Shown one piece after another: positions 2,725 through 56,811 of a stretch of DNA of 64,000 nucleotides. Every line of letters starts with the position of its first letter. Within the stretch, counting starts at the first letter, position 1. Origin of the DNA: Limnephilus marmoratus (Eukaryota > Arthropoda > Insecta > Trichoptera > Limnephilidae); assembly GCA_917880885.1 (NCBI GenBank), contig OU862923.1, forward strand, positions 22,542,770-22,606,769, in the 5' to 3' direction. The translations under genes were made by a program, and so were the position numbers. Below the pieces are notes generated by a model. That model saw only the letters and a program-made list of their open reading frames with translations, did no database searches and was not told the DNA's origin.

Positions 2725-3770
2725 CGGACTTCCCGCATCCTTGTGTACGTTCTTGAGGGAGAGGTCGATTCAGACCGGTAGTCGATGGTTTCACCTCTTC
2801 CTCACACTCGATAAATGCTGGCGTCCCGCAGGGATCGGTTCTGTCTCCGACTTTGTTTTTGTTGCACATCAACGACCTTTTGTCATGTGCACCAATTCAC
2901 TGTTACGCGGATGACAGTACAGTTCATGATAGCTTTTTGTTTGACAAGCCCCCAAAGGGCTCACAAACTCCAACAGCTTGTATGGCTTTGAAGCAAAGAA
3001 TGGACGGTTACCTCGAGAGTGTTTTCTCTTGGGGTAAAAATAATCTCGTTGAATTTAATGTTTCAAAGACCCAATCTTGTCTGATTACGTCTAAAAGGGA
3101 TCGAAATGAAAATCTAGTCTCTTTCAACGGAAGCAATCTTCCGAACAGGCCCTCCATCGAAATGCTTGGTGTAACCCTAAGTGACCAGCTCAGGTATGTG
3201 GGCTCCATCGAAGCCAGAGTAAAGTTAGCCTCACAGAAACTGGGCGTACTGTACAGGGCCCGCAGATACTTTAATAGTACACAACTGCTAACCCTGTACA
3301 AATCACAAGTGCGCCCCACGGTTGAATTTGGCAGCCACCTCTGGTCTGGAGCTCCAAAATACCTGAAAAATACCCTCGACTCTGTGCAGAAACAGGCGGT
3401 CCGTTCGATAGATTCTCCCATCTTAACAGACGGATTGCAATCTTTAGAGCACAGGCATCGGGTGGGAATGCTATCCTTGTTCTACCGGTATTACAATGGA
3501 AGATGCTTCGAGGAACTAGCATCATTGATCCCTTCGGCACCGGTGCATAGTCGGGAAACACGCCAAACGCGTGCCCAACATTTGTACACGGTTGACATTT
3601 GCCACATGAGAACGGGTGGTTTCTTCGACTCGTTCTTGTGTTCAACAGCTCGGCTGTGGAATGATTTGCCGGCCTCTGTGTTTCCTCCTTCCTACAACAT
3701 GGCTATCTTCAAGACCAATGTTCATTCCTTCCTCTCCTCAAAAAGACCCTCCACACAGCATCCCAGATGA
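2725..3770 (+). pseudogene. LINE-A reverse transcriptase, C-terminal half (CR1/Jockey-like)
   Basis: The reverse transcriptase core is partly present. NAGVPQGSVLSPTLFLLHIND (2815-2877) is motif B/finger-palm, HCYADDSTVHDS (2899-2934) holds the catalytic YADD, and MLGVTLSDQLRY, VRPTVEFGSHLWSG and STARLWNDLPASVFP follow to the stop at 3770. From the YADD region on the frame is intact for about 300 codons. Upstream, FLRERSIQTG sits in another frame than VVDGFTSS, which shows a frameshift near 2790, and the element is 5'-truncated near 2725. The 3' untranslated region with its stem-loop follows directly. Truncated relatives lie at 18665-19390 (minus) and 26325-26541. Confidence 0.88.
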
Positions 3771-3835
3771 CATAGGCCCTGAGGGAAATTATTTTCCTCA
3801 GGGCCTCCTGCGTGGAGTTAACGTAAAAAAAATGA
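3771..3835 (+). other. LINE-A 3' terminal stem-loop and A-rich tail
   Basis: Just after the stop, GGCCCTGAGG (3775-3784) pairs perfectly with CCTCAGGGCC (3796-3805) across an 11-nt AT-rich loop. CTCCTGCGTGGAGTTAACGT and an A-run follow. The same hairpin recurs at the 3' end of SINE-1 copies, so it is probably the RNA structure recognised by the LINE-A reverse transcriptase. Confidence 0.75.
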
Positions 3836-4009
3836 CAATTATTTTTCTTTATTCCCTACGTACTATATAAATATTATGATTTCTATAACCATGGAAGTAT
3901 GTATTAACTCACAAAACATTGCCAAAGCTGCCTCTAAAATCATGAAAACACATTTGATGGTCTACTATATTTTAAAACACAAATAAATAAAATAGCTCAT
4001 TATTGTGAT

Positions 4010-4340
4010 TTATTTTACGTAGCCCTGATGAAAGCAAATTTCCCTTGGGGCCTATGTCATCTTTGGGGATGCGGTAAGTCTTTTTTAGGTAAAGAAGGAG
4101 GGGAATTTCGGATAAAGAAAAAGGTACTAGGGGTAGGTGGGAATCTAGGGTGTCTAGGACTGACGGACAATCGAGATAGTCCGGCTGGAGATTCTCCAGC
4201 CGGACTATTTCGACCCCCCACGCAGTAGGTGGGCAAACGCACCCGCCGCTAATACCTAGAAAAATCTCACTCATAAACACAGGGGCCCCTGCTAAGCCAC
4301 CAGACGTAGCGAACCACTTGGGGTGACCTATGGCAGCCCT
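4010..4340 (-). mobile_element. SINE-1 copy (LINE-A-tailed), 5'-truncated
   Basis: Read on the minus strand it runs from CACCCCAAGTGGTTCGCTAC-like head sequence (4310-4330) to the GACATAGGCCCC...ACGTAAAATAAA 3' end (4010-4050) shared with LINE-A. The stem of the 3' hairpin is degenerate. It contains a 16-bp-arm palindrome at 4176-4208 that other copies do not share. Confidence 0.75.
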
Positions 4341-4344
4341 ATCT

Positions 4345-4480
4345 GCACTGATTACACATCTGCCCTGATGATGTAAATTGTAACTCTGTCCGATAAGTTG
4401 GTTAAAGAAGGAGGTAAGCACAACACGACAAAATTCCCTAAAAATAAATCACAATCATTATGCCGTGAAAATCTCAAATC
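4345..4480 (+). repeat. Penelope-like terminal repeat fragment with degenerate hammerhead-like core
   Basis: It matches 60520-60650 (the right terminal repeat of the Penelope-like element): ACACATCTGcCCTGATGATG, TTAAAGAAGGAGGTA and CCGTGAAAATCT occur in the same order. The CTGATGA (4365-4371) and a GATAA in place of GAAAC (4392-4396) are the remains of the hammerhead-like core. The stem II partners are eroded. Confidence 0.6.
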
Positions 4481-4621
4481 TTGACAAAATAGCTCATATC
4501 CTTGCTAGATATTTTCTTAATATTTTTATTAAAAAATAAATTGTTCAGTTTGTTGGATATTTTGGCCTGAAATCCAACCTTAAGTTTTATATGATAACGG
4601 CCCCGCAGCCGTTCCTCTTAA

Positions 4622-5039
4622 TTTCGCCTTATCAAAGGTGCTCTCGGCTTGACGGCCGGTAAAATAGAGTTTATAGAGCACCATAATGTTGTAGTGTTTA
4701 CGTTGAAATTTGTACGTAAGATAGAATGTTCCTAATAAATTAAGTTGGTGGATTGTTATCAGTTATCTCTATTTTTATGGTGCTTGAGTTGTAAGGATCG
4801 GAATTTTTAACATTTTTCTCTCTATCTGTTCTGTCGTGATAATAATAAATAATATGTTTACTCTTTTTTTTAACTAATTATGAGTTAACTACTCGTAAGC
4901 TTTCTTTATATTATTAAACGAGGCTCGATAATTTTCATGTATACGGTAGTCACGATAATGATAGGTATAAACTGTCAAGACTTTAGAAAAACAGCTACAG
5001 GGCGTTTGTCCACCGGCACCGTCACCGAGAAACCTCTCT
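4622..5039. other. Unassigned AT-rich stretch
   Basis: No coding frame, inverted ends or similarity to the other repeats of the window was seen here. Confidence 0.4.
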
Positions 5040-8899: not shown

Positions 8900-10155
8900 C
8901 GCAGAACTAACTTGCCAATGGTTGTGCCAGTTGGGAGAGCTTTCTTGTTGTTAAATAGAATCACTTCGGATATCAATATGTTTAACATCAATGAAGCAAA
9001 ATTCAAACAGCAAGCTTCGTTGCTATTAGTGTAAATCTGTTTATCTCATTTAAAATATTTTTCTCTTTTAAAAATGCCTTGAAATTGTAATTTTTTAAAT
9101 GAATAAATTAAATTGAATTAATACTAGCTTCCGTTTGTTTTATAAGATTTTTTACCCCAAGTACGCTTTTTTAATGTCTTCACCTACATATAAATAAGAG
9201 GTACATATTTACTTAGGCTATCTATACGAGAGAACTATTATTACACTAAATTACGCGCACAATGGTATTTACATAATAATAATATAAACAATTTATAGCA
9301 ACGTTATTAACGTTAATCGACCCAAGCAATATATGTATAATGTTCTAGATCTTGTATTTATTTTAAGACGCCAGATAAAAATACGGATACACGAAAGACA
9401 TCATTATTGTATTAATCCCCTTATTACAACATTTTTTTTACAACATCAGGTATTTGAACCAACACATATACTGCAACCCATTAAAAATTGTTAAACAGAC
9501 AACTCAACAATGTGCAACTAGAAAAGTTAATAGGAGTGATGAAAAAAAACAGAGTGTGCAATTCACACGCGGTAGAAGTGAAACCTTTAGAAAACTAAAG
9601 TAGACAAGAGTAGGGAGGTTACGAAGCACCGCACAAACAGGAGACCGATTATACTATATCACTCTCTCGCAGGCTGTATGTGTTTGCCTCTTTTTAGTGT
9701 CGCTATTTTTCGTTTCATCGAGTTTCAAATCACAACGGTGCTGAAGAAGTTTTCACTTCAAAACATGATTAAAAAGGTTACTTTGCATTAGGATACTTTA
9801 AATATATTTTTTCATCATTTTCAATGACTTTTCAAAGGGGTTTGCAATATTGCAATACCACTTTGTTGTGTTGTCATGGAACCTAATAATGAAAACATAT
9901 CAAAGAACGAAATAATAATATACAAGACAACACCAGACAGTTAATAAAAATAATTTTCTGCGCTTTTGTAAGTATAATTGTCTGTAGAAAGAATATGGCA
10001 TTGATAAAAAGCGAAAATTAGCAATCCACGGAGACTTGAAAAGTATGCCTTATTATATACATATTGCGTGCTACTCCGCTAGGAGACTACATACACGGTG
10101 TCCGGAAACTCATGGTACCAGCGGGAAACAGTTGAATCTACTTCACATCTATTTT
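8900..10155. other. Unassigned AT-rich stretch
   Basis: No gene-like frame. The word CAATTCACACGCGGTAGAAGTG near 9560 looks like repeat sequence but no boundaries could be set. Confidence 0.35.
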
Positions 10156-37426: not shown

Positions 37427-37639
37427 TCAATATATATTATAAAAGAAAGTCCAAAAAAACGTGCGGATCGCAAAAACTCAGAAACGAGTGCCGGTACGAC
37501 CAAGAGATTTATATGGTATGGTAGATCTCTATCCCCCCTAGGGAATAAGGGTATTCGTTTTTACCTAAAGGGTTTGCTTTTGAAGATATAAGGGCTGAAA
37601 GTTCTAAGAAATTTCAAGAAAAGTCTGGAAGATTCCGGA

Positions 37640-39850
37640 AACTTCTAGAAAATTCGATAAAACTCTGGAATGTTCTAGAAGAAACGGAGGAGTACGTCAG
37701 CGAGTCTAGAAGGTTCCGGAAAGTTCAAGAAGGTTTGATAAAGCTGTAGAAAGTTTTGAAAGGAGTGGTGGTGTGTGTCTAGAAGGTTCCGGAAAATTCT
37801 AGAAGGTTTCATAAAGCTGTAGGAAGTCCTAGAAGGTTCGATAGGGCTGTACAAAGTTCTGGAAGGAGTGGCGGAGTATGTCGATAAGTCTAGATGGTTC
37901 CGGAAAGTTCTAGAAGGTACGAAAAAGCCGTGAAAGTTCTGGAAGGAGTGGCGGAGTAGGTCGGTGAGTCTAGAAGGATCTGATGGTTCACAAATGCTTA
38001 GAAAATTGTGGATGGAGAAAGTTCTAGAAGCTTTCAAAAATAAATGACGGTAAGTCTAGAAGATTCGGAAAGTTCTAGAAGGTTCGATAGAGCTATACAA
38101 AGTTCTGAAAGGAGTGGAGGAGTGTGTCGGTGTGTCTAGAAGGTTCCGGAAAATTCTAGAAGGTTCCATAAAGCTGTGGAAGTTCTAGAAGGTTCTATAG
38201 AGCTGTACAAAGTTCAGGAAGTAGTGGCGGAGTATGTCGGTGAGTCTAGATTATTCCGGAAAGTTCTAGAAGGTTTGATAAAACTGTAAAAAGTTGTAGA
38301 AGGTTACATAAGGCTGTATAAAGTTCTGAAAGGAGTGGAGGAGTGAGTCGGTGTGTGTAGAAGGTTCCGGAAAATTCTTGAGGATTTCACAAAGCTGTAG
38401 AAAGTTCTAGAAAGTTCGATAAAGCTATACAAAGTTCTGGAAGGAGTGGCGGAGTAAGTCGGTAAGTCTAGAAGGTTCCGGTAAGTTCTAGAAGGTTCGA
38501 TAAAGTTGTACAAAGTTCTGAAATGAATGTTGGAATATGTCAGTGGGTTTAGAAGTTTCCAGAAAGTTCTAGAAGGTTCGATAAAACTGTAGAAAGTTCT
38601 GGAAGGTTCCGTAAAGCTTTACAAAGTTCTGGAAGGAGTGGCGGAGTATGTCGGTAAGTCTAGATGGTTCCGGAAAGTTCTAGAAGGTTCGATAAAGCTG
38701 TACAAAGTTCTGGAAGGAATGGTGGAATATGTCAGTGAGTTTAGAAGTTTCCGGAAAGTTCTAAAAGGTTCGATAAAACTGTAGAAAGTTCTGGAAGGTT
38801 CCGTAAAGCTTTACAAAGTTCTGGAAGGAGTGGCGGAGTAATTCGGTGAGTCTAGAAGGTTCCGGAAAGTTCTAGAATAATGGTTAATAAAAGGTTCGAT
38901 AAAGTTGTACAAAGTTCTGAAAGGAATGGTGGAATATATCGGTGGGTTTAGAAGTTTCCGGAAAGTACTAGAAGGTTCCGTAATGCTGTAGAAAGTTCTG
39001 ATAGGAGTGGAGGAGTGTGTCGGTGTATCTAGAAGGTACCGAAAAATTCTAGAAGGTTCCATAAAGCTGAAGGAAGTCCTAGAAGGTTCGATAGGGCTGT
39101 ACAAAGTTCTGAAAGGAGTGGCGGAGTATGCCGGTGACTATAGAAGGTTACGAAAAGATCTATAAGGTTCGATAGGGCTATAGAAAATTCCGGTAGGAGT
39201 GGCGGAGAATGTCGGTGAGCCTAGAAGGTTCCGAAAAGTTCTACAAGGTTCGAAAAAGCTGTAGAAAGTTCTAGAAGGAGTAGCGGAGTATGTCGGTGAG
39301 TCTAGAAGATTCCGGAAAATTCCAGAGGATTCCATAAAGTTTCATAAGGTACGATAAAGCTGCAAAAAGTTCTGAAAGGAGTGGTAGAATATGTCGGTGG
39401 ATCTAGAAGGTTCCGGAAAGCTCTAAAACGTTCGATAAAGCTGCAAAAAGTTCTGGAAGGAGTGGCGTGAGTCTAGAAGTTTCCGAAAAGTTCTACAAGG
39501 TTCGATAAAGCTATAGAAAAATCTATAAGGAGTGGTGAAGTATGTCGGTGAGTCTAGAAGATTCCTAAAACTTCTAGAAATTTCAATAAAGCTGTAGAAA
39601 GTTCGGGAAGGAGTGGCGGAGTACGTCGGTGAGTCTAGAAGGTTCCGAAAAGTTCTAGAAGGTTCTATAAGGCTCCAGAAAGTTCTGGAAGGAGCGATGG
39701 AGTATGTCGGTGAGTCTAGATGGTTCTAGATAGTTCTGGAAGATTCCCTTATGCTCTAGGATGTTATGGAAGGAGAAAGTTCAAGAAGCTTTCAGAAATG
39801 AGTGGCGGAGAGTGTCAGTGAGTCTAGAAGGTTCTGGAAAGTTCTAGAAG
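37640..39850 (+). repeat. ~80-bp tandem array made of heat-shock elements
   Basis: A unit of about 80 bp (GTTCTGGAAGGAGTGGCGGA - GTATGTCGGTGAGTCTAGAA - GGTTCCGGAAAGTTCTAGAA - GGTTCGATAAAGCTGTACAA, lightly variable) recurs roughly two dozen times, with some compound units. Its second half is alternating TTC/GAA at 5-bp spacing. Examples are six perfect consecutive units at 38139-38166 and five at 38668-38690. Nearly every unit has at least three in register. Confidence 0.88.
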
Positions 39851-40169
39851 TTTGGATTATATTATTAAATAAACAATTTGCATGCCGCTAAAACTCAAAG
39901 ACGAGTCCCGGTACGATAACGGGGGTATATTGTGTGGTAGCCCTCTATCCTCAGTCCATGAAGATAGTTCCTGTTCTTACCTGAAGGGCGTGCTTTTAAA
40001 GATATAAGAGCTGGAAGTTTCACTCCGTTGAAATTTCTAGAACAGTTCAAAAAATTCTAGAGTATTCTTGAGCATTCCACCACATTCCAGAACATCTCGG
40101 AACATTCTGTAATGTTCGGGAATAGGATGGAACGTTCAGGAACATACCGGAACAGTTCAGATCATTGTG

Positions 40170-40300
40170 GAACATTCCAGAACACTTCTGAATGTTGTGG
40201 AATGATCTGGAACCTTATTCTGGAACATTTGAATTTTTTTTATATGGGACTACCCATATGGGGTATATAAAGCAAGATCCGTCGTGAATTCGAACGTCAA
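40170..40300 (+). promoter_or_regulatory. hsp-like promoter inside Helitron-H copy 1
   Basis: A perfect nGAAnnTTCnnGAAn site lies at 40170-40182, and TTCTGGAACATTT at 40218-40230 is a second, weaker one. TATATAAA follows at 40264-40271. A TCAATTC initiator-like site starts at 40297, 30-35 bp downstream of the TATA box, and continues into an A/C-rich leader. This spacing is that of insect heat-shock gene promoters. The first downstream ATG (40320) opens only a short frame. Activity is inferred. Confidence 0.6.
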
Positions 40301-40633
40301 TTCAATCTCACATCAACTCCATGAGCGATGCCGGACACCCCAGTCAGAGTATTTGAGAGCATTCCACAACGTTCCAGAACATTCCGGAACCTTCTGGAAA
40401 ATTGTGAAATGTTCGAGAATAGAGAATTGGGAACATCAATGTGAAACATTCCAGAACATTCTCGAATGTTTTCCTGAGCGAAGCCGGGTAACCCAGCTAG
40501 TAATAATGATAATGTTTGGATGATTTCTATAGCGATCTTCGTGAGAAAATCACCCCACAAATTTTACAAATTCATTTATAAGAATAACATTCCGATAAGA
40601 ATAAGAATAGGTATCATTTAGATTTCTCAATTT

Positions 40634-41128
40634 GGGAGGTAGGTATGGGTACGGCCGCCCCGGGAACCATTTATTGGATAACAAACACCTCTGCCATACT
40701 TCACCCCAAGTGGTTCGCTACGTTTGGTGACTTAGCAGGTGTACCCGGATACCCGGGGTGAAGTTTTTCCAGTTCTTGGCGGTGGATGTGTCTGCCCACC
40801 AGCTGCAAGGCATGCCGGAAGAGACTGGTTGAGGGAGACCTGGTGACCTCTTAAGCAGAACTCTTTTGGAACATAGCATTAAACCCCAGTGGGAGGGATG
40901 GATTCATTTCATTCACAGACGTGCGTCACTCCTGGACTCACTGTCCTGTCCTGTCCTGTCCTGTCCTGTCCTGTCCTGTCCTGTCCTGTCCTGTCCACCC
41001 TTCATACCGTATCCTTCCCAGAATTTGAAACCCTGGCGATTTCTACACGGCATCCCTAAAGATGACATAGGCTCTGAGGGAAAATATTTTCCTCAGAGCC
41101 TTCTGTGTGGAGCTATTGTAAAAAAAAG
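40634..41128 (+). mobile_element. SINE-1 copy, full length, with CTGTC microsatellite
   Basis: It starts TTTGGGAGGTAGGTATGGGT, passes GCCCCGGGAACCATTTATTGG and CCCCAAGTGGTTCGCTACG, and ends with the LINE-A-like tail: hairpin GGCTCTGAGG/CCTCAGAGCC (41070-41100) and AGCTATTGTAAAAAAA. Compared with LINE-A, both sides of the stem carry a matching change. Eleven CTGTC units (40941-40995) sit in the middle. Confidence 0.82.
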
Positions 41129-53545: not shown

Positions 53546-53937
53546 AAGTAATACATATTGTGGACAAATACCTAGATCTATGAAAAACAAATAATATTGT
53601 GAACGAATACCTACTAGATCTTTTAACCATTGTTAATAATAATAAATACATTAAATTACTATCTTACATTATGTTCATAAGCATTATAATAATCAGTTAA
53701 GTATTATTTTAATATTAAGTATTATATTATTAAGTAACTAGCTGGGTTACCCGGCTTCGCTCAGGAAAACATTCGAGAATGTTCTGGAATGTTTCACATT
53801 GATGTTCCCAATTCTCTATTCTCGAACATTTCACAATTTTCCAGAAGGTTCCGGAATGTTCTGGAACGTTGTGGAATGCTCTCAAATACTCTGACTGGGG
53901 TGTCCGGCATCGCTCATGGAGTTGATGTGAGATTGAA

Positions 53938-54068
53938 TTGACGTTCGAATTCACGACGGATCTTGCTTTATATACCCCATATGGGTAGTCCCATATAAAA
54001 AAAATTCAAATGTTCCAGAATAAGGTTCCAGATCATTCCACAACATTCAGAAGTGTTCTGGAATGTTC
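53938..54068 (-). promoter_or_regulatory. hsp-like promoter inside Helitron-H copy 2
   Basis: The minus-strand order is perfect three-unit HSE (54056-54068), second HSE (54008-54020), TATA box TATATAAA (53967-53974) and an initiator-like TCAATTC at 53935-53941. The arrangement equals copy 1. It would direct transcription toward lower coordinates and out of the element's CTAG end. Confidence 0.58.
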
Positions 54069-54387
54069 CACAATGATCTGAACTGTTCCGGTATGTTCCT
54101 GAACGTTCCATCCTATTCCCGAACATTACAGAATGTTCCGAGATGTTCTGGAATGTGGTGGAATGCTCAAGAATACTCTAGAATTTTTTGAACTGTTCTA
54201 GAAATTTCAACGGAGTGAAACTTCCAGCTCTTATATCTTTAAAAGCACGCCCTTCAGGTAAGAACAGGAACTATCTTCATGGACTGAGGATAGAGGGCTA
54301 CCACACAATATACCCCCGTTATCGTACCGGGACTCGTCTTTGAGTTTTAGCGGCATGCAAATTGTTTATTTAATAATATAATCCAAA

Positions 54388-56598
54388 CTTCTAGAACTTT
54401 CCAGAACCTTCTAGACTCACTGACACTCTCCGCCACTCATTTCTGAAAGCTTCTTGAACTTTCTCCTTCCATAACATCCTAGAGCATAAGGGAATCTTCC
54501 AGAACTATCTAGAACCATCTAGACTCACCGACATACTCCATCGCTCCTTCCAGAACTTTCTGGAGCCTTATAGAACCTTCTAGAACTTTTCGGAACCTTC
54601 TAGACTCACCGACGTACTCCGCCACTCCTTCCCGAACTTTCTACAGCTTTATTGAAATTTCTAGAAGTTTTAGGAATCTTCTAGACTCACCGACATACTT
54701 CACCACTCCTTATAGATTTTTCTATAGCTTTATCGAACCTTGAAGAACTTTTCGGAAACTTCTAGACTCACGCCACTCCTTCCAGAACTTTTTGCAGCTT
54801 TATCGAACGTTTTAGAGCTTTCCGGAACCTTCTAGATCCACCGACATATTCTACCACTCCTTTCAGAACTTTTTGCAGCTTTATCGTACCTTATGAAACT
54901 TTATGGAATCCTCTGGAATTTTCCGGAATCTTCTAGACTCACCGACATACTCCGCTACTCCTTCTAGAACTTTCTACAGCTTTTTCGAACCTTGTAGAAC
55001 TTTTCGGAACCTTCTAGGCTCACCGACATTCTCCGCCACTCCTACCGGAATTTTCTATAGCCCTATCGAACCTTATAGATCTTTTCGTAACCTTCTATAG
55101 TCACCGGCATACTCCGCCACTCCTTTCAGAACTTTGTACAGCCCTATCGAACCTTCTAGGACTTCCTTCAGCTTTATGGAACCTTCTAGAATTTTTCGGT
55201 ACCTTCTAGATACACCGACACACTCCTCCACTCCTATCAGAACTTTCTACAGCATTACGGAACCTTCTAGTACTTTCCGGAAACTTCTAAACCCACCGAT
55301 ATATTCCACCATTCCTTTCAGAACTTTGTACAACTTTATCGAACCTTTTATTAACCATTATTCTAGAACTTTCCGGAACCTTCTAGACTCACCGAATTAC
55401 TCCGCCACTCCTTCCAGAACTTTGTAAAGCTTTACGGAACCTTCCAGAACTTTCTACAGTTTTATCGAACCTTTTAGAACTTTCCGGAAACTTCTAAACT
55501 CACTGACATATTCCACCATTCCTTCCAGAACTTTGTACAGCTTTATCGAACCTTCTAGAACTTTCCGGAACCATCTAGACTTACCGACATACTCCGCCAC
55601 TCCTTCCAGAACTTTGTAAAGCTTTACGGAACCTTCCAGAACTTTCTACAGTTTTATCGAACCTTCTAGAACTTTCCGGAAACTTCTAAACCCACTGACA
55701 TATTCCAACATTCATTTCAGAACTTTGTACAACTTTATCGAACCTTCTAGAACTTACCGGAACCTTCTAGACTTACCGACTTACTCCGCCACTCCTTCCA
55801 GAACTTTGTATAGCTTTATCGAACTTTCTAGAACTTTCTACAGCTTTGTGAAATCCTCAAGAATTTTCCGGAACCTTCTACACACACCGACTCACTCCTC
55901 CACTCCTTTCAGAACTTTATACAGCCTTATGTAACCTTCTACAACTTTTTACAGTTTTATCAAACCTTCTAGAACTTTCCGGAATAATCTAGACTCACCG
56001 ACATACTCCGCCACTACTTCCTGAACTTTGTACAGCTCTATAGAACCTTCTAGAACTTCCACAGCTTTATGGAACCTTCTAGAATTTTCCGGAACCTTCT
56101 AGACACACCGACACACTCCTCCACTCCTTTCAGAACTTTGTATAGCTCTATCGAACCTTCTAGAACTTTCCGAATCTTCTAGACTTACCGTCATTTATTT
56201 TTGAAAGCTTCTAGAACTTTCTCCATCCACAATTTTCTAAGCATTTGTGAACCATCAGATCCTTCTAGACTCACCGACCTACTCCGCCACTCCTTCCAGA
56301 ACTTTCACGGCTTTTTCGTACCTTCTAGAACTTTCCGGAACCATCTAGACTTATCGACATACTCCGCCACTCCTTCCAGAACTTTGTACAGCCCTATCGA
56401 ACCTTCTAGGACTTCCTACAGCTTTATGAAACCTTCTAGAATTTTCCGGAACCTTCTAGACACACACCACCACTCCTTTCAAAACTTTCTACAGCTTTAT
56501 CAAACCTTCTTGAACTTTCCGGAACCTTCTAGACTCGCTGACGTACTCCTCCGTTTCTTCTAGAACATTCCAGAGTTTTATCGAATTTTCTAGAAGTT
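54388..56598 (-). repeat. ~80-bp heat-shock-element array, copy 2
   Basis: Mirror of 37640-39850. The six-unit perfect GAA/TTC run falls at 56072-56099 and the five-unit run at 55548-55570. Frames through it on the plus strand are repeat products. Confidence 0.88.
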
Positions 56599-56811
56599 TC
56601 CGGAATCTTCCAGACTTTTCTTGAAATTTCTTAGAACTTTCAGCCCTTATATCTTCAAAAGCAAACCCTTTAGGTAAAAACGAATACCCTTATTCCCTAG
56701 GGGGGATAGAGATCTACCATACCATATAAATCTCTTGGTCGTACCGGCACTCGTTTCTGAGTTTTTGCGATCCGCACGTTTTTTTGGACTTTCTTTTATA
56801 ATATATATTGA

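What the first reader, a model, noticed from the sequence alone, without database searches (positions are those of the whole stretch)
37427..40500. Helitron-type element built from dozens of heat-shock elements
Seen: a TC...CTAG element at an A|T site carries about 2.2 kb of ~80-bp repeats whose core is alternating TTC/GAA every 5 bp. Runs reach six perfect units (38139-38166) and five (38668-38690), where a minimal HSE needs three. Known: HSF trimers bind nGAAnnTTCnnGAAn, and Helitrons with HSEs have been reported to rewire the heat-shock response in nematodes. Inferred: this insect element is an HSF sponge or a mobile heat-shock enhancer, possibly undescribed in this lineage.
Basis: partly seen in the sequence, partly recalled or inferred. 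Interest (0 to 1): 0.92.

Follow-up and report, generated by a model that had tools for sequence, protein, structure and literature searches.

The report
Helitron packed with heat-shock sites
A recently moved jumping gene in a caddisfly genome carries dozens of copies of the DNA switch that normally turns genes on during heat stress, and related copies are spread in large numbers through the genome, so it may be a heat-driven transposon that scatters heat switches; whether it really responds to heat is not yet tested.

Summary
Window 37427-40500 (+) and 56811-53738 (-) are two copies of one 3,074-bp Helitron-type element (2 differences, unrelated flanks, A|TC...CTAG|T). Each carries 38 perfect runs of three or more alternating GAA/TTC units at 5-bp spacing; 500 shuffles averaged 0.1 (maximum 3). 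Genome-wide, the five-unit motif occurs 10,755 times against 16 for the reversed pattern, and the 3' terminus (up to 3 mismatches) 2,916 times against 3. Assembly statistics identify the host as the caddisfly Limnephilus marmoratus.

The window element looks like an internal-deletion derivative of a Rep/PIF1-helicase Helitron (L067) with the same termini. That partner, itself broken, has the array directly upstream of a TATA-containing promoter and the Rep gene. The derivative kept array, TATA region and 3' end and lost the stretch with the gene. A host Hsp70 promoter has the same order (four-unit HSE, TATATAAA, TCAGTT).

Most likely this is a Helitron with a heat-shock-type promoter whose derivatives spread HSF sites. 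HSF binding and heat response are inferred. The closest precedent, HSE-rich Helitrons of Caenorhabditis, was reported as not found in other animals then examined. Core-specific selection inside the array is inconclusive.

The parts
37427..40500 (+). copy A of the non-autonomous Helitron-type element
   Evidence: Identical to copy B but for 2 bases over 3,074 bp, different flanks, A|TC...CTAG|T
53738..56811 (-). copy B of the same element
   Evidence: same HSE run counts as copy A
37427..37449 (+). 5' terminus TCAATATATATTATAAAAGAAAG
   Evidence: Found with 0-1 errors, preceded by A, in 19 of 20 other genomic copies read, also in L067 and L068
37600..39855 (+). main HSE array: 81/111-bp units, the typical unit with a block of up to six alternating GAA/TTC units at 5-bp spacing
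   Evidence: 33 runs of three or more units, shuffles mean 0.08; unit structure
39888..40015 (+). degenerate second copy of the 5' flank of the array (compare 37480-37600)
   Evidence: read by eye from the sequence; similar internal matches in several other copies
40030..40185 (+). promoter-proximal HSE-like repeats (GGAACATTCC type); three-unit runs at 40030, 40130 and 40170
   Evidence: 40061-40302 aligns to the promoter of partner L067, 69% over 250 columns
40264..40271 (+). TATA box TATATAAA, about 80 bp downstream of the nearest three-unit HSE
   Evidence: sequence; also upstream of the Rep gene in L067 and L068
40300..40302 (+). inferred junction of the internal deletion: promoter side aligns to L067 up to 4739, 3' side from 9286; the Rep/helicase gene lies between
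40318..40350 (+). degenerate upstream copy of the 3' end (GAGCGATGCCGGACACCCCAGTCAG); the partner has GAGCGAAGCCGGGTATCCCAGCTAG at the aligned place
40372..40470 (+). 3' HSE-like block (six-unit run at 40372, four-unit run at 40449), itself similar to the promoter-proximal block
   Evidence: 3' 200 bp are 87% identical to L067, and 40358-40461 also matches the L067 promoter block at 77%
40480..40500 (+). 3' terminus GAAGCCGGGTAACCCAGCTAG with a weak hairpin 40482-40498
   Evidence: 1471+1445 genomic matches at up to 3 mismatches, reversed control 1+2; fold

Best explanation
The element is a non-autonomous, recently mobile Helitron that arose by internal deletion from a Rep/PIF1-helicase Helitron of the same genome. 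In that partner the HSE array, promoter-proximal HSEs and a TATA box sit directly upstream of the Rep gene. Shown by sequence: termini, insertion pattern, recency, three-piece alignment to the partner, partner anatomy, HSE density, copy number. Inferred: on heat or proteotoxic stress, HSF trimers bind the array cooperatively and switch on Rep/helicase transcription from the partner. Rep mobilises both partner and derivatives through the shared termini. Derivatives keep the array and TATA region because they are deletions of such elements and perhaps because transcription at the ends helps mobilisation. As a by-product, thousands of copies seed HSF sites around the genome, where they can act as heat-responsive promoters or enhancers or, collectively, compete for HSF.
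For: Two copies 99.93% identical with A|TC...CTAG|T. 19 of 20 other copies have the same 5' end, 20 of 20 have T after CTAG, and 20 of 20 have HSE runs of three or more. 3' end 2,916 vs reversed control 3. Five-unit HSE 10,755 vs 16; three-unit HSE 98,790 vs 16,849. Partner L067: same 5' end, array, TATA, Rep and PIF1 domains, same 3' end; second partner locus L068, read on its upstream side only, with the same upstream arrangement. The window element aligns to L067 as 5' part + promoter + 3' part with the gene missing. One host Hsp70 promoter has a four-unit HSE, TATATAAA and TCAGTT in the same order. The motif and its exact 5-bp alternation are the HSF site (established knowledge). In C. [quoted passage not shown] sections of PMC6927752).
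Against: No binding or expression data. L067 is broken in frame and L068 was read only in part, so no full-length open partner was shown. The best-scoring intact Rep group shows no HSE run of three or more in the eight stretches read (L059-L066), and the flanks of the one copy read (L065, L066) hold neither terminus, so Helitrons here do not need such arrays. Within the HSE blocks, core bases are hardly better conserved than spacer bases of the same kind, so HSF-specific selection on the array is not demonstrated. The promoter and 3' HSE blocks resemble each other and cross-match, which makes the finer alignment of that part less certain. The HSF gene search (PF00447) did not complete.
Confidence: 0.72

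Rival explanations
1. Minisatellite by-product: a 10-bp repeat (nnGAAnnTTC) happened to expand inside a Helitron by slippage or rolling-circle replication, as central tandem repeats do in other Helitrons, and the HSE match has no function.
For: Unit periods 30, 81 and 111 bp and element lengths varying from about 1.4 to 3.9 kb among copies; core and spacer bases of the same kind equally conserved in the register units (G/C 0.81 vs 0.805, A/T 0.943 vs 0.943).
Against: Two arrays with different spacer letters both keep the alternation. The array sits at the promoter of the Rep gene in 2 of 2 partner loci read. Blocks keep more three-unit HSEs than random placement of their changes gives (1.14 vs 0.80, 0 of 500; relatedness not controlled).
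Confidence: 0.2
2. Replication or Rep-binding sites: the palindromic repeats (TTCTAGAA, TTCCGGAA) serve as hairpins or Rep-binding sites in transposition, not as HSF sites.
For: Palindromes abundant in the units; an HSE-derived hairpin lies at 40444-40471 near the 3' end.
Against: The 5-bp alternation of half-sites in both orders is characteristic of HSF sites (established knowledge). The main array lies next to the promoter rather than at the termini in the partner. The other Rep group lacks runs of three or more in the stretches read.
Confidence: 0.06
3. Host-selected HSF sponge or buffered heat-shock control, the copies being kept for the host.
For: Large excess of HSEs (about 82,000 three-unit sites over the reversed pattern).
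Against: Near-identical recent copies and multiple subfamilies are explained by selfish spread; no host use was tested.
Confidence: 0.02

Closest known systems
HSE-rich Helitrons of Caenorhabditis (Helitron1_CE, HelitronY1/Y1A/Y4_CE, Helitron2_CE; Garrigues et al. 2019, PMC6927752; Schreiner et al. 2019, PMC6765114)
   Same: Helitrons, autonomous and non-autonomous, with many HSEs in dense clusters; HSEs at the promoter of Helitron1_CE (passages), as at the Rep promoter here.
   Different: Insect host; 81/111-bp array with six-unit runs; only sequence evidence here. Garrigues et al. report enrichment only in Caenorhabditis among the animal genomes they examined (section 9). Homology of the HSE part or termini with the nematode elements was not tested.
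Rep/PIF1 Helitrons of other animals (e.g. Araneus ventricosus, Anastrepha obliqua proteins)
   Same: 638-aa Rep piece of the partner is 64% and 62% identical to these.
   Different: Their flanks were not available, so whether they carry HSEs is unknown.
Human satellite III, HSF1-bound (GGAAT)n (recalled; a review, PMC9032817, seen only in a search listing)
   Same: Tandem repeat with HSF half-sites.
   Different: Pericentromeric satellite, not a dispersed mobile promoter.
ONSEN heat-activated retrotransposon of Arabidopsis (recalled; seen only in a search listing)
   Same: Transposon activated by heat.
   Different: LTR retrotransposon of plants.

Membership tests
Helitron | 5' TC and 3' CTRR | tested here: met
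   TC...CTAG in both window copies and in 19 of 20 others; the twentieth has only the 3' end
Helitron | insertion between A and T without target-site duplication | tested here: met
   Both window copies A|T; T after CTAG in 20 of 20, A before the outermost TC in 19 of 19; the empty site was not seen
Helitron | hairpin about 10-12 nt upstream of CTRR (position recalled) | tested here: inconclusive
   Weak hairpin 40482-40498 reaches into CTAG; stronger one at 40444-40471
Helitron | autonomous partner with Rep (HUH) and PIF1 helicase and the same termini | tested here: met
   L067: Helitron_like_N 5.8e-53, PIF1 2.5e-63, same ends; frames broken in this copy, no intact partner seen
HSE-carrying Helitron (as in Caenorhabditis) | HSE density far above chance inside Helitrons | tested here: met
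   6.7-22.8 three-unit HSEs per kb in 20 elements
HSE-carrying Helitron (as in Caenorhabditis) | Helitrons hold a large share of the genome's HSEs | tested here: inconclusive
   Strong genomic excess; 58 of the first 100 listed five-unit sites lie within 6.5 kb upstream of a listed exact 3' end, the other 42 unassigned
HSE-carrying Helitron (as in Caenorhabditis) | HSEs at the Rep-helicase promoter | tested here: met
   2 of 2 partner loci read
HSE-carrying Helitron (as in Caenorhabditis) | HSF binding and heat induction | not testable with these tools
   no ChIP or RNA-seq available

The most novel reading that the evidence does not exclude
Helitrons captured or evolved a heat-shock promoter independently in an insect lineage. 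In this caddisfly they have supplied most of the strong HSEs of the genome (tens of thousands), so that heat both mobilises the element and rewires which genes respond to heat: a second, arthropod instance of what was thought possibly restricted to Caenorhabditis.
Probability: 0.5. Interest if true: 0.86.

Novelty: new member of a known kind. Interest (0 to 1): 0.74.

Why it matters
The published survey (Garrigues et al. 2019, section 9) concluded that the Helitron-HSE association may be restricted to Caenorhabditis. A caddisfly with about 2,900 matches to the 3' end and 10,755 five-unit HSEs would make it a repeated outcome. It allows a direct comparative test of whether heat-shock promoters are a favoured strategy for rolling-circle transposons and whether such transposons rewire heat responses in freshwater insects exposed to warming.

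Tried and rejected
Copies or relatives outside the genome: viral-contig scans with the 3' end, the array and the Rep piece gave nothing usable. Coding potential of the 81-bp unit: the unit is open in one frame, but no frame of 130 aa or more lies in the element; rejected. An hsp70-like initiator TCAATTC in copy A was my first thought; the alignment puts this stretch at the deletion junction, so I dropped it. Best-scoring intact Rep group as partner: the flanks of the one copy read (L065, L066) lack these termini, and L059-L066 have no run of three or more; not the partner as far as seen, though its own ends were not located. Purifying selection on GAA/TTC cores: entropy 0.62 vs 0.91 at first sight, but no difference from spacers after matching base kind in register units; a block-level test favours retention without control for relatedness; left inconclusive. 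COX1 for species identification never ran; I used assembly statistics instead.

Full report
What is there. Two copies of one element lie in the window, 37427-40500 (+) and 56811-53738 (-). They differ at 2 of 3,074 bases, have unrelated flanks, begin with TC after A and end with CTAG before T. This fixes the ends and shows recent movement. The middle 2.25 kb is an array of 81- and 111-bp units with 30-bp sub-repeats. The typical unit carries a block GAAGGTTCCGGAAAGTTCTAGAAGGTTC, six alternating half-sites at exact 5-bp spacing.

Chance. Both copies have 38 runs of three or more units, 19 of four or more, 9 of five or more and 4 of six. In 500 dinucleotide shuffles of copy A, runs of three or more averaged 0.10 (maximum 3) and five or more never occurred. 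The other 57,852 bases of the window hold one run of three. Shuffling one 81-bp unit 20,000 times never gave more than three, against six in the unit. Spacings of 4 and 6-12 bp gave 0 runs of three, 3 bp gave 1 and 5 bp gave 38. TTCnnnGAA (the STAT spacing, recalled) occurs once.

Genome. The window lies in G000:C17, 1,629,871,801 bases in 67 contigs. The total, the scaffold number and the lengths of C1, C5, C15 and C24 agree with the Limnephilus marmoratus assembly iiLimMarm1.1: 1,630 Mb, 67 scaffolds, chromosomes of 77.25, 62.56, 54.71 and 44.8 Mb (passages of PMC10509604). The identification is inference from these figures, not from a marker gene. The five-unit pattern occurs 5,403+5,352 times against 8+8 for the same pattern read backwards (a six-unit run counts on both strands). 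The three-unit pattern occurs 49,327+49,463 times against 8,448+8,401. The 3' end with up to three mismatches occurs 1,471+1,445 times against 1+2.

Other copies. Of these 20, 19 have the 5' end with 0-1 errors, at the outermost match always after A; 20 of 20 have T after CTAG; 20 of 20 have runs of three or more (5 to 52, counted over up to 6.5 kb, so some include neighbouring elements); 19 of 20 have runs of five or more. L039 lacks the 5' end and was dropped from the later unit analyses. Those analyses cut each element at the innermost 5' match, which makes L050 only 598 bp long instead of 3,677 and also shortens L052 and L056. The best local alignment to another of the 20 analysed elements (19 plus the window copy) has 75% to 99.8% identity, so several subfamilies of different age all keep the array. 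Densities of three-unit HSEs are 6.7-22.8 per kb over these 20. Of the first 100 listed five-unit sites, 58 lie within 6.5 kb upstream of one of the listed exact 3' ends. The other 42 could not be assigned; diverged 3' ends are not in that listing.

Partner. The genome has 146 matches to Helitron_like_N among 150 scored candidates, many with frames above 1,400 aa. The best-scoring group shows no run of three or more in L059-L066, and the flanks of the one copy read further (L065, L066) hold neither terminus; its own ends were not located. C1:25392358 lies 3 kb from an exact 3' end on the same strand. Its locus L067 has, in order: the 5' end, an HSE array (runs from 3317 to 4276), promoter-proximal HSEs (4546, 4631), TATATAAA at 4700 with TCAGTT at 4733, Rep and helicase pieces (first ATG of the leader at 4900, helicase frame ending at 9212), and two 3' ends. 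Pfam finds Helitron_like_N at 5.8e-53 in the 638-aa piece and PIF1 at 2.5e-63 in the 486-aa piece. The reading frames are broken in this copy. L068 (upstream side only) repeats 5' end, array, proximal HSEs and TATA, followed by a frame of 350 aa open to the end of the stretch. No full-length open copy of this group was seen. The best hit of the Rep piece by score is an Araneus ventricosus protein (64% identical); flies, planthoppers, hookworms and frogs are also among the best 120 of 2,109 hits, which range from 54% to 66% identity.

Derivation. Copy A aligns to L067 in three pieces: 37427-38761 with 3127-4441 (77%), 40061-40302 with 4518-4739 (69%), 40300-40500 with 9286-9485 (87%). The Rep and helicase pieces lie between 4739 and 9286. 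The window element thus reads as an internal deletion that kept array, promoter region and both ends and lost the leader, the gene and a little 3' sequence. Two further alignments (40358-40461 with 4518-4621, 77%; 40057-40198 with 9330-9457, 72%) show that the promoter and 3' HSE blocks are related to each other; the TATA stretch is what ties 40061-40302 to the promoter.

Host promoter. In one uninterrupted Hsp70 frame (C15:3339511) the 890 bp upstream hold a four-unit HSE GAAATTTCTCGAATATTC, then TATATAAA starting 53 bp after it, then TCAGTT 29 bp from the start of the TATA box (33 bp in L067). The transposon promoter has the same order. This shows that a heat-gene homologue of the host carries the motif; it does not show binding.

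Selection. Results are mixed. Core positions are more conserved than all non-core positions matched by base (9 of 5,000 permutations reach the difference), but units were anchored on the block. Inside the block, core and spacer are equal by base kind in the register set of 176 distinct units (G/C 0.81 vs 0.805, A/T 0.943 vs 0.943) and differ slightly in a wider set of 401 blocks (changes: G/C 0.288 vs 0.338, A/T 0.103 vs 0.185). Blocks keep more three-unit HSEs than if their changes were placed at random (1.14 vs 0.80, 0 of 500), without control for common descent. I do not claim demonstrated selection on the array.

Mechanism. The most likely working is a heat-shock-type promoter for Rep/helicase in the partner, with derivatives mobilised in trans through the shared ends. 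Precedent: in C. elegans, Helitron1_CE RNA is heat-induced dependent on HSF-1 and its HSEs are bound (passages of PMC6765114; sections 5, 8, 9 and 12 of PMC6927752). Everything about HSF in the caddisfly is inferred.

Novelty. Garrigues et al. found the association only in Caenorhabditis among UCSC animal genomes with annotated repeats (section 9). Searches of the held library for Helitron with heat shock element or factor, with insects, lepidopterans or beetles, Trichoptera or caddisflies showed no insect case in the titles and abstract beginnings listed. Two of these lists were cut (20 of 46, 20 of 40). Besides the three papers above I saw passages of three listed ones (PMC13104882, PMC11431837, PMC12062965), which point back to Caenorhabditis or to satellites; the rest were not opened, and subscription journals are not held. 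I rate it a new member of a known kind in a new phylum.

Noticed in passing
G000:C9:1.9-5.2 Mb and G000:C23:39.68-40.07 Mb: Apparent large expansion of HSP70-family genes, many with separate first exons covering residues 1-63 of the family, in two clusters, besides three uninterrupted full-length Hsp70 frames on C15 (74 PF00012 matches in all).
   Followed up: no
G000 (L059-L066): Another, apparently intact Helitron group with many long Rep frames (up to 1,884 aa), without HSE runs of three or more in the stretches read and without these termini in the flanks of the one copy read.
   Followed up: partly
window 3131-3832 and 19378-18666: Pair of inverted 94%-identical copies; the first overlaps an open frame matching reverse transcriptase RVT_1.
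   Followed up: no
window 40941-40996: Perfect CTGTC pentanucleotide repeat, 11.2 copies, shortly after the element.
   Followed up: no
G000:C1:1-2500000: The listing of five-unit HSEs, in order of position, starts only at 2.5 Mb of C1 and is then dense.
   Followed up: no
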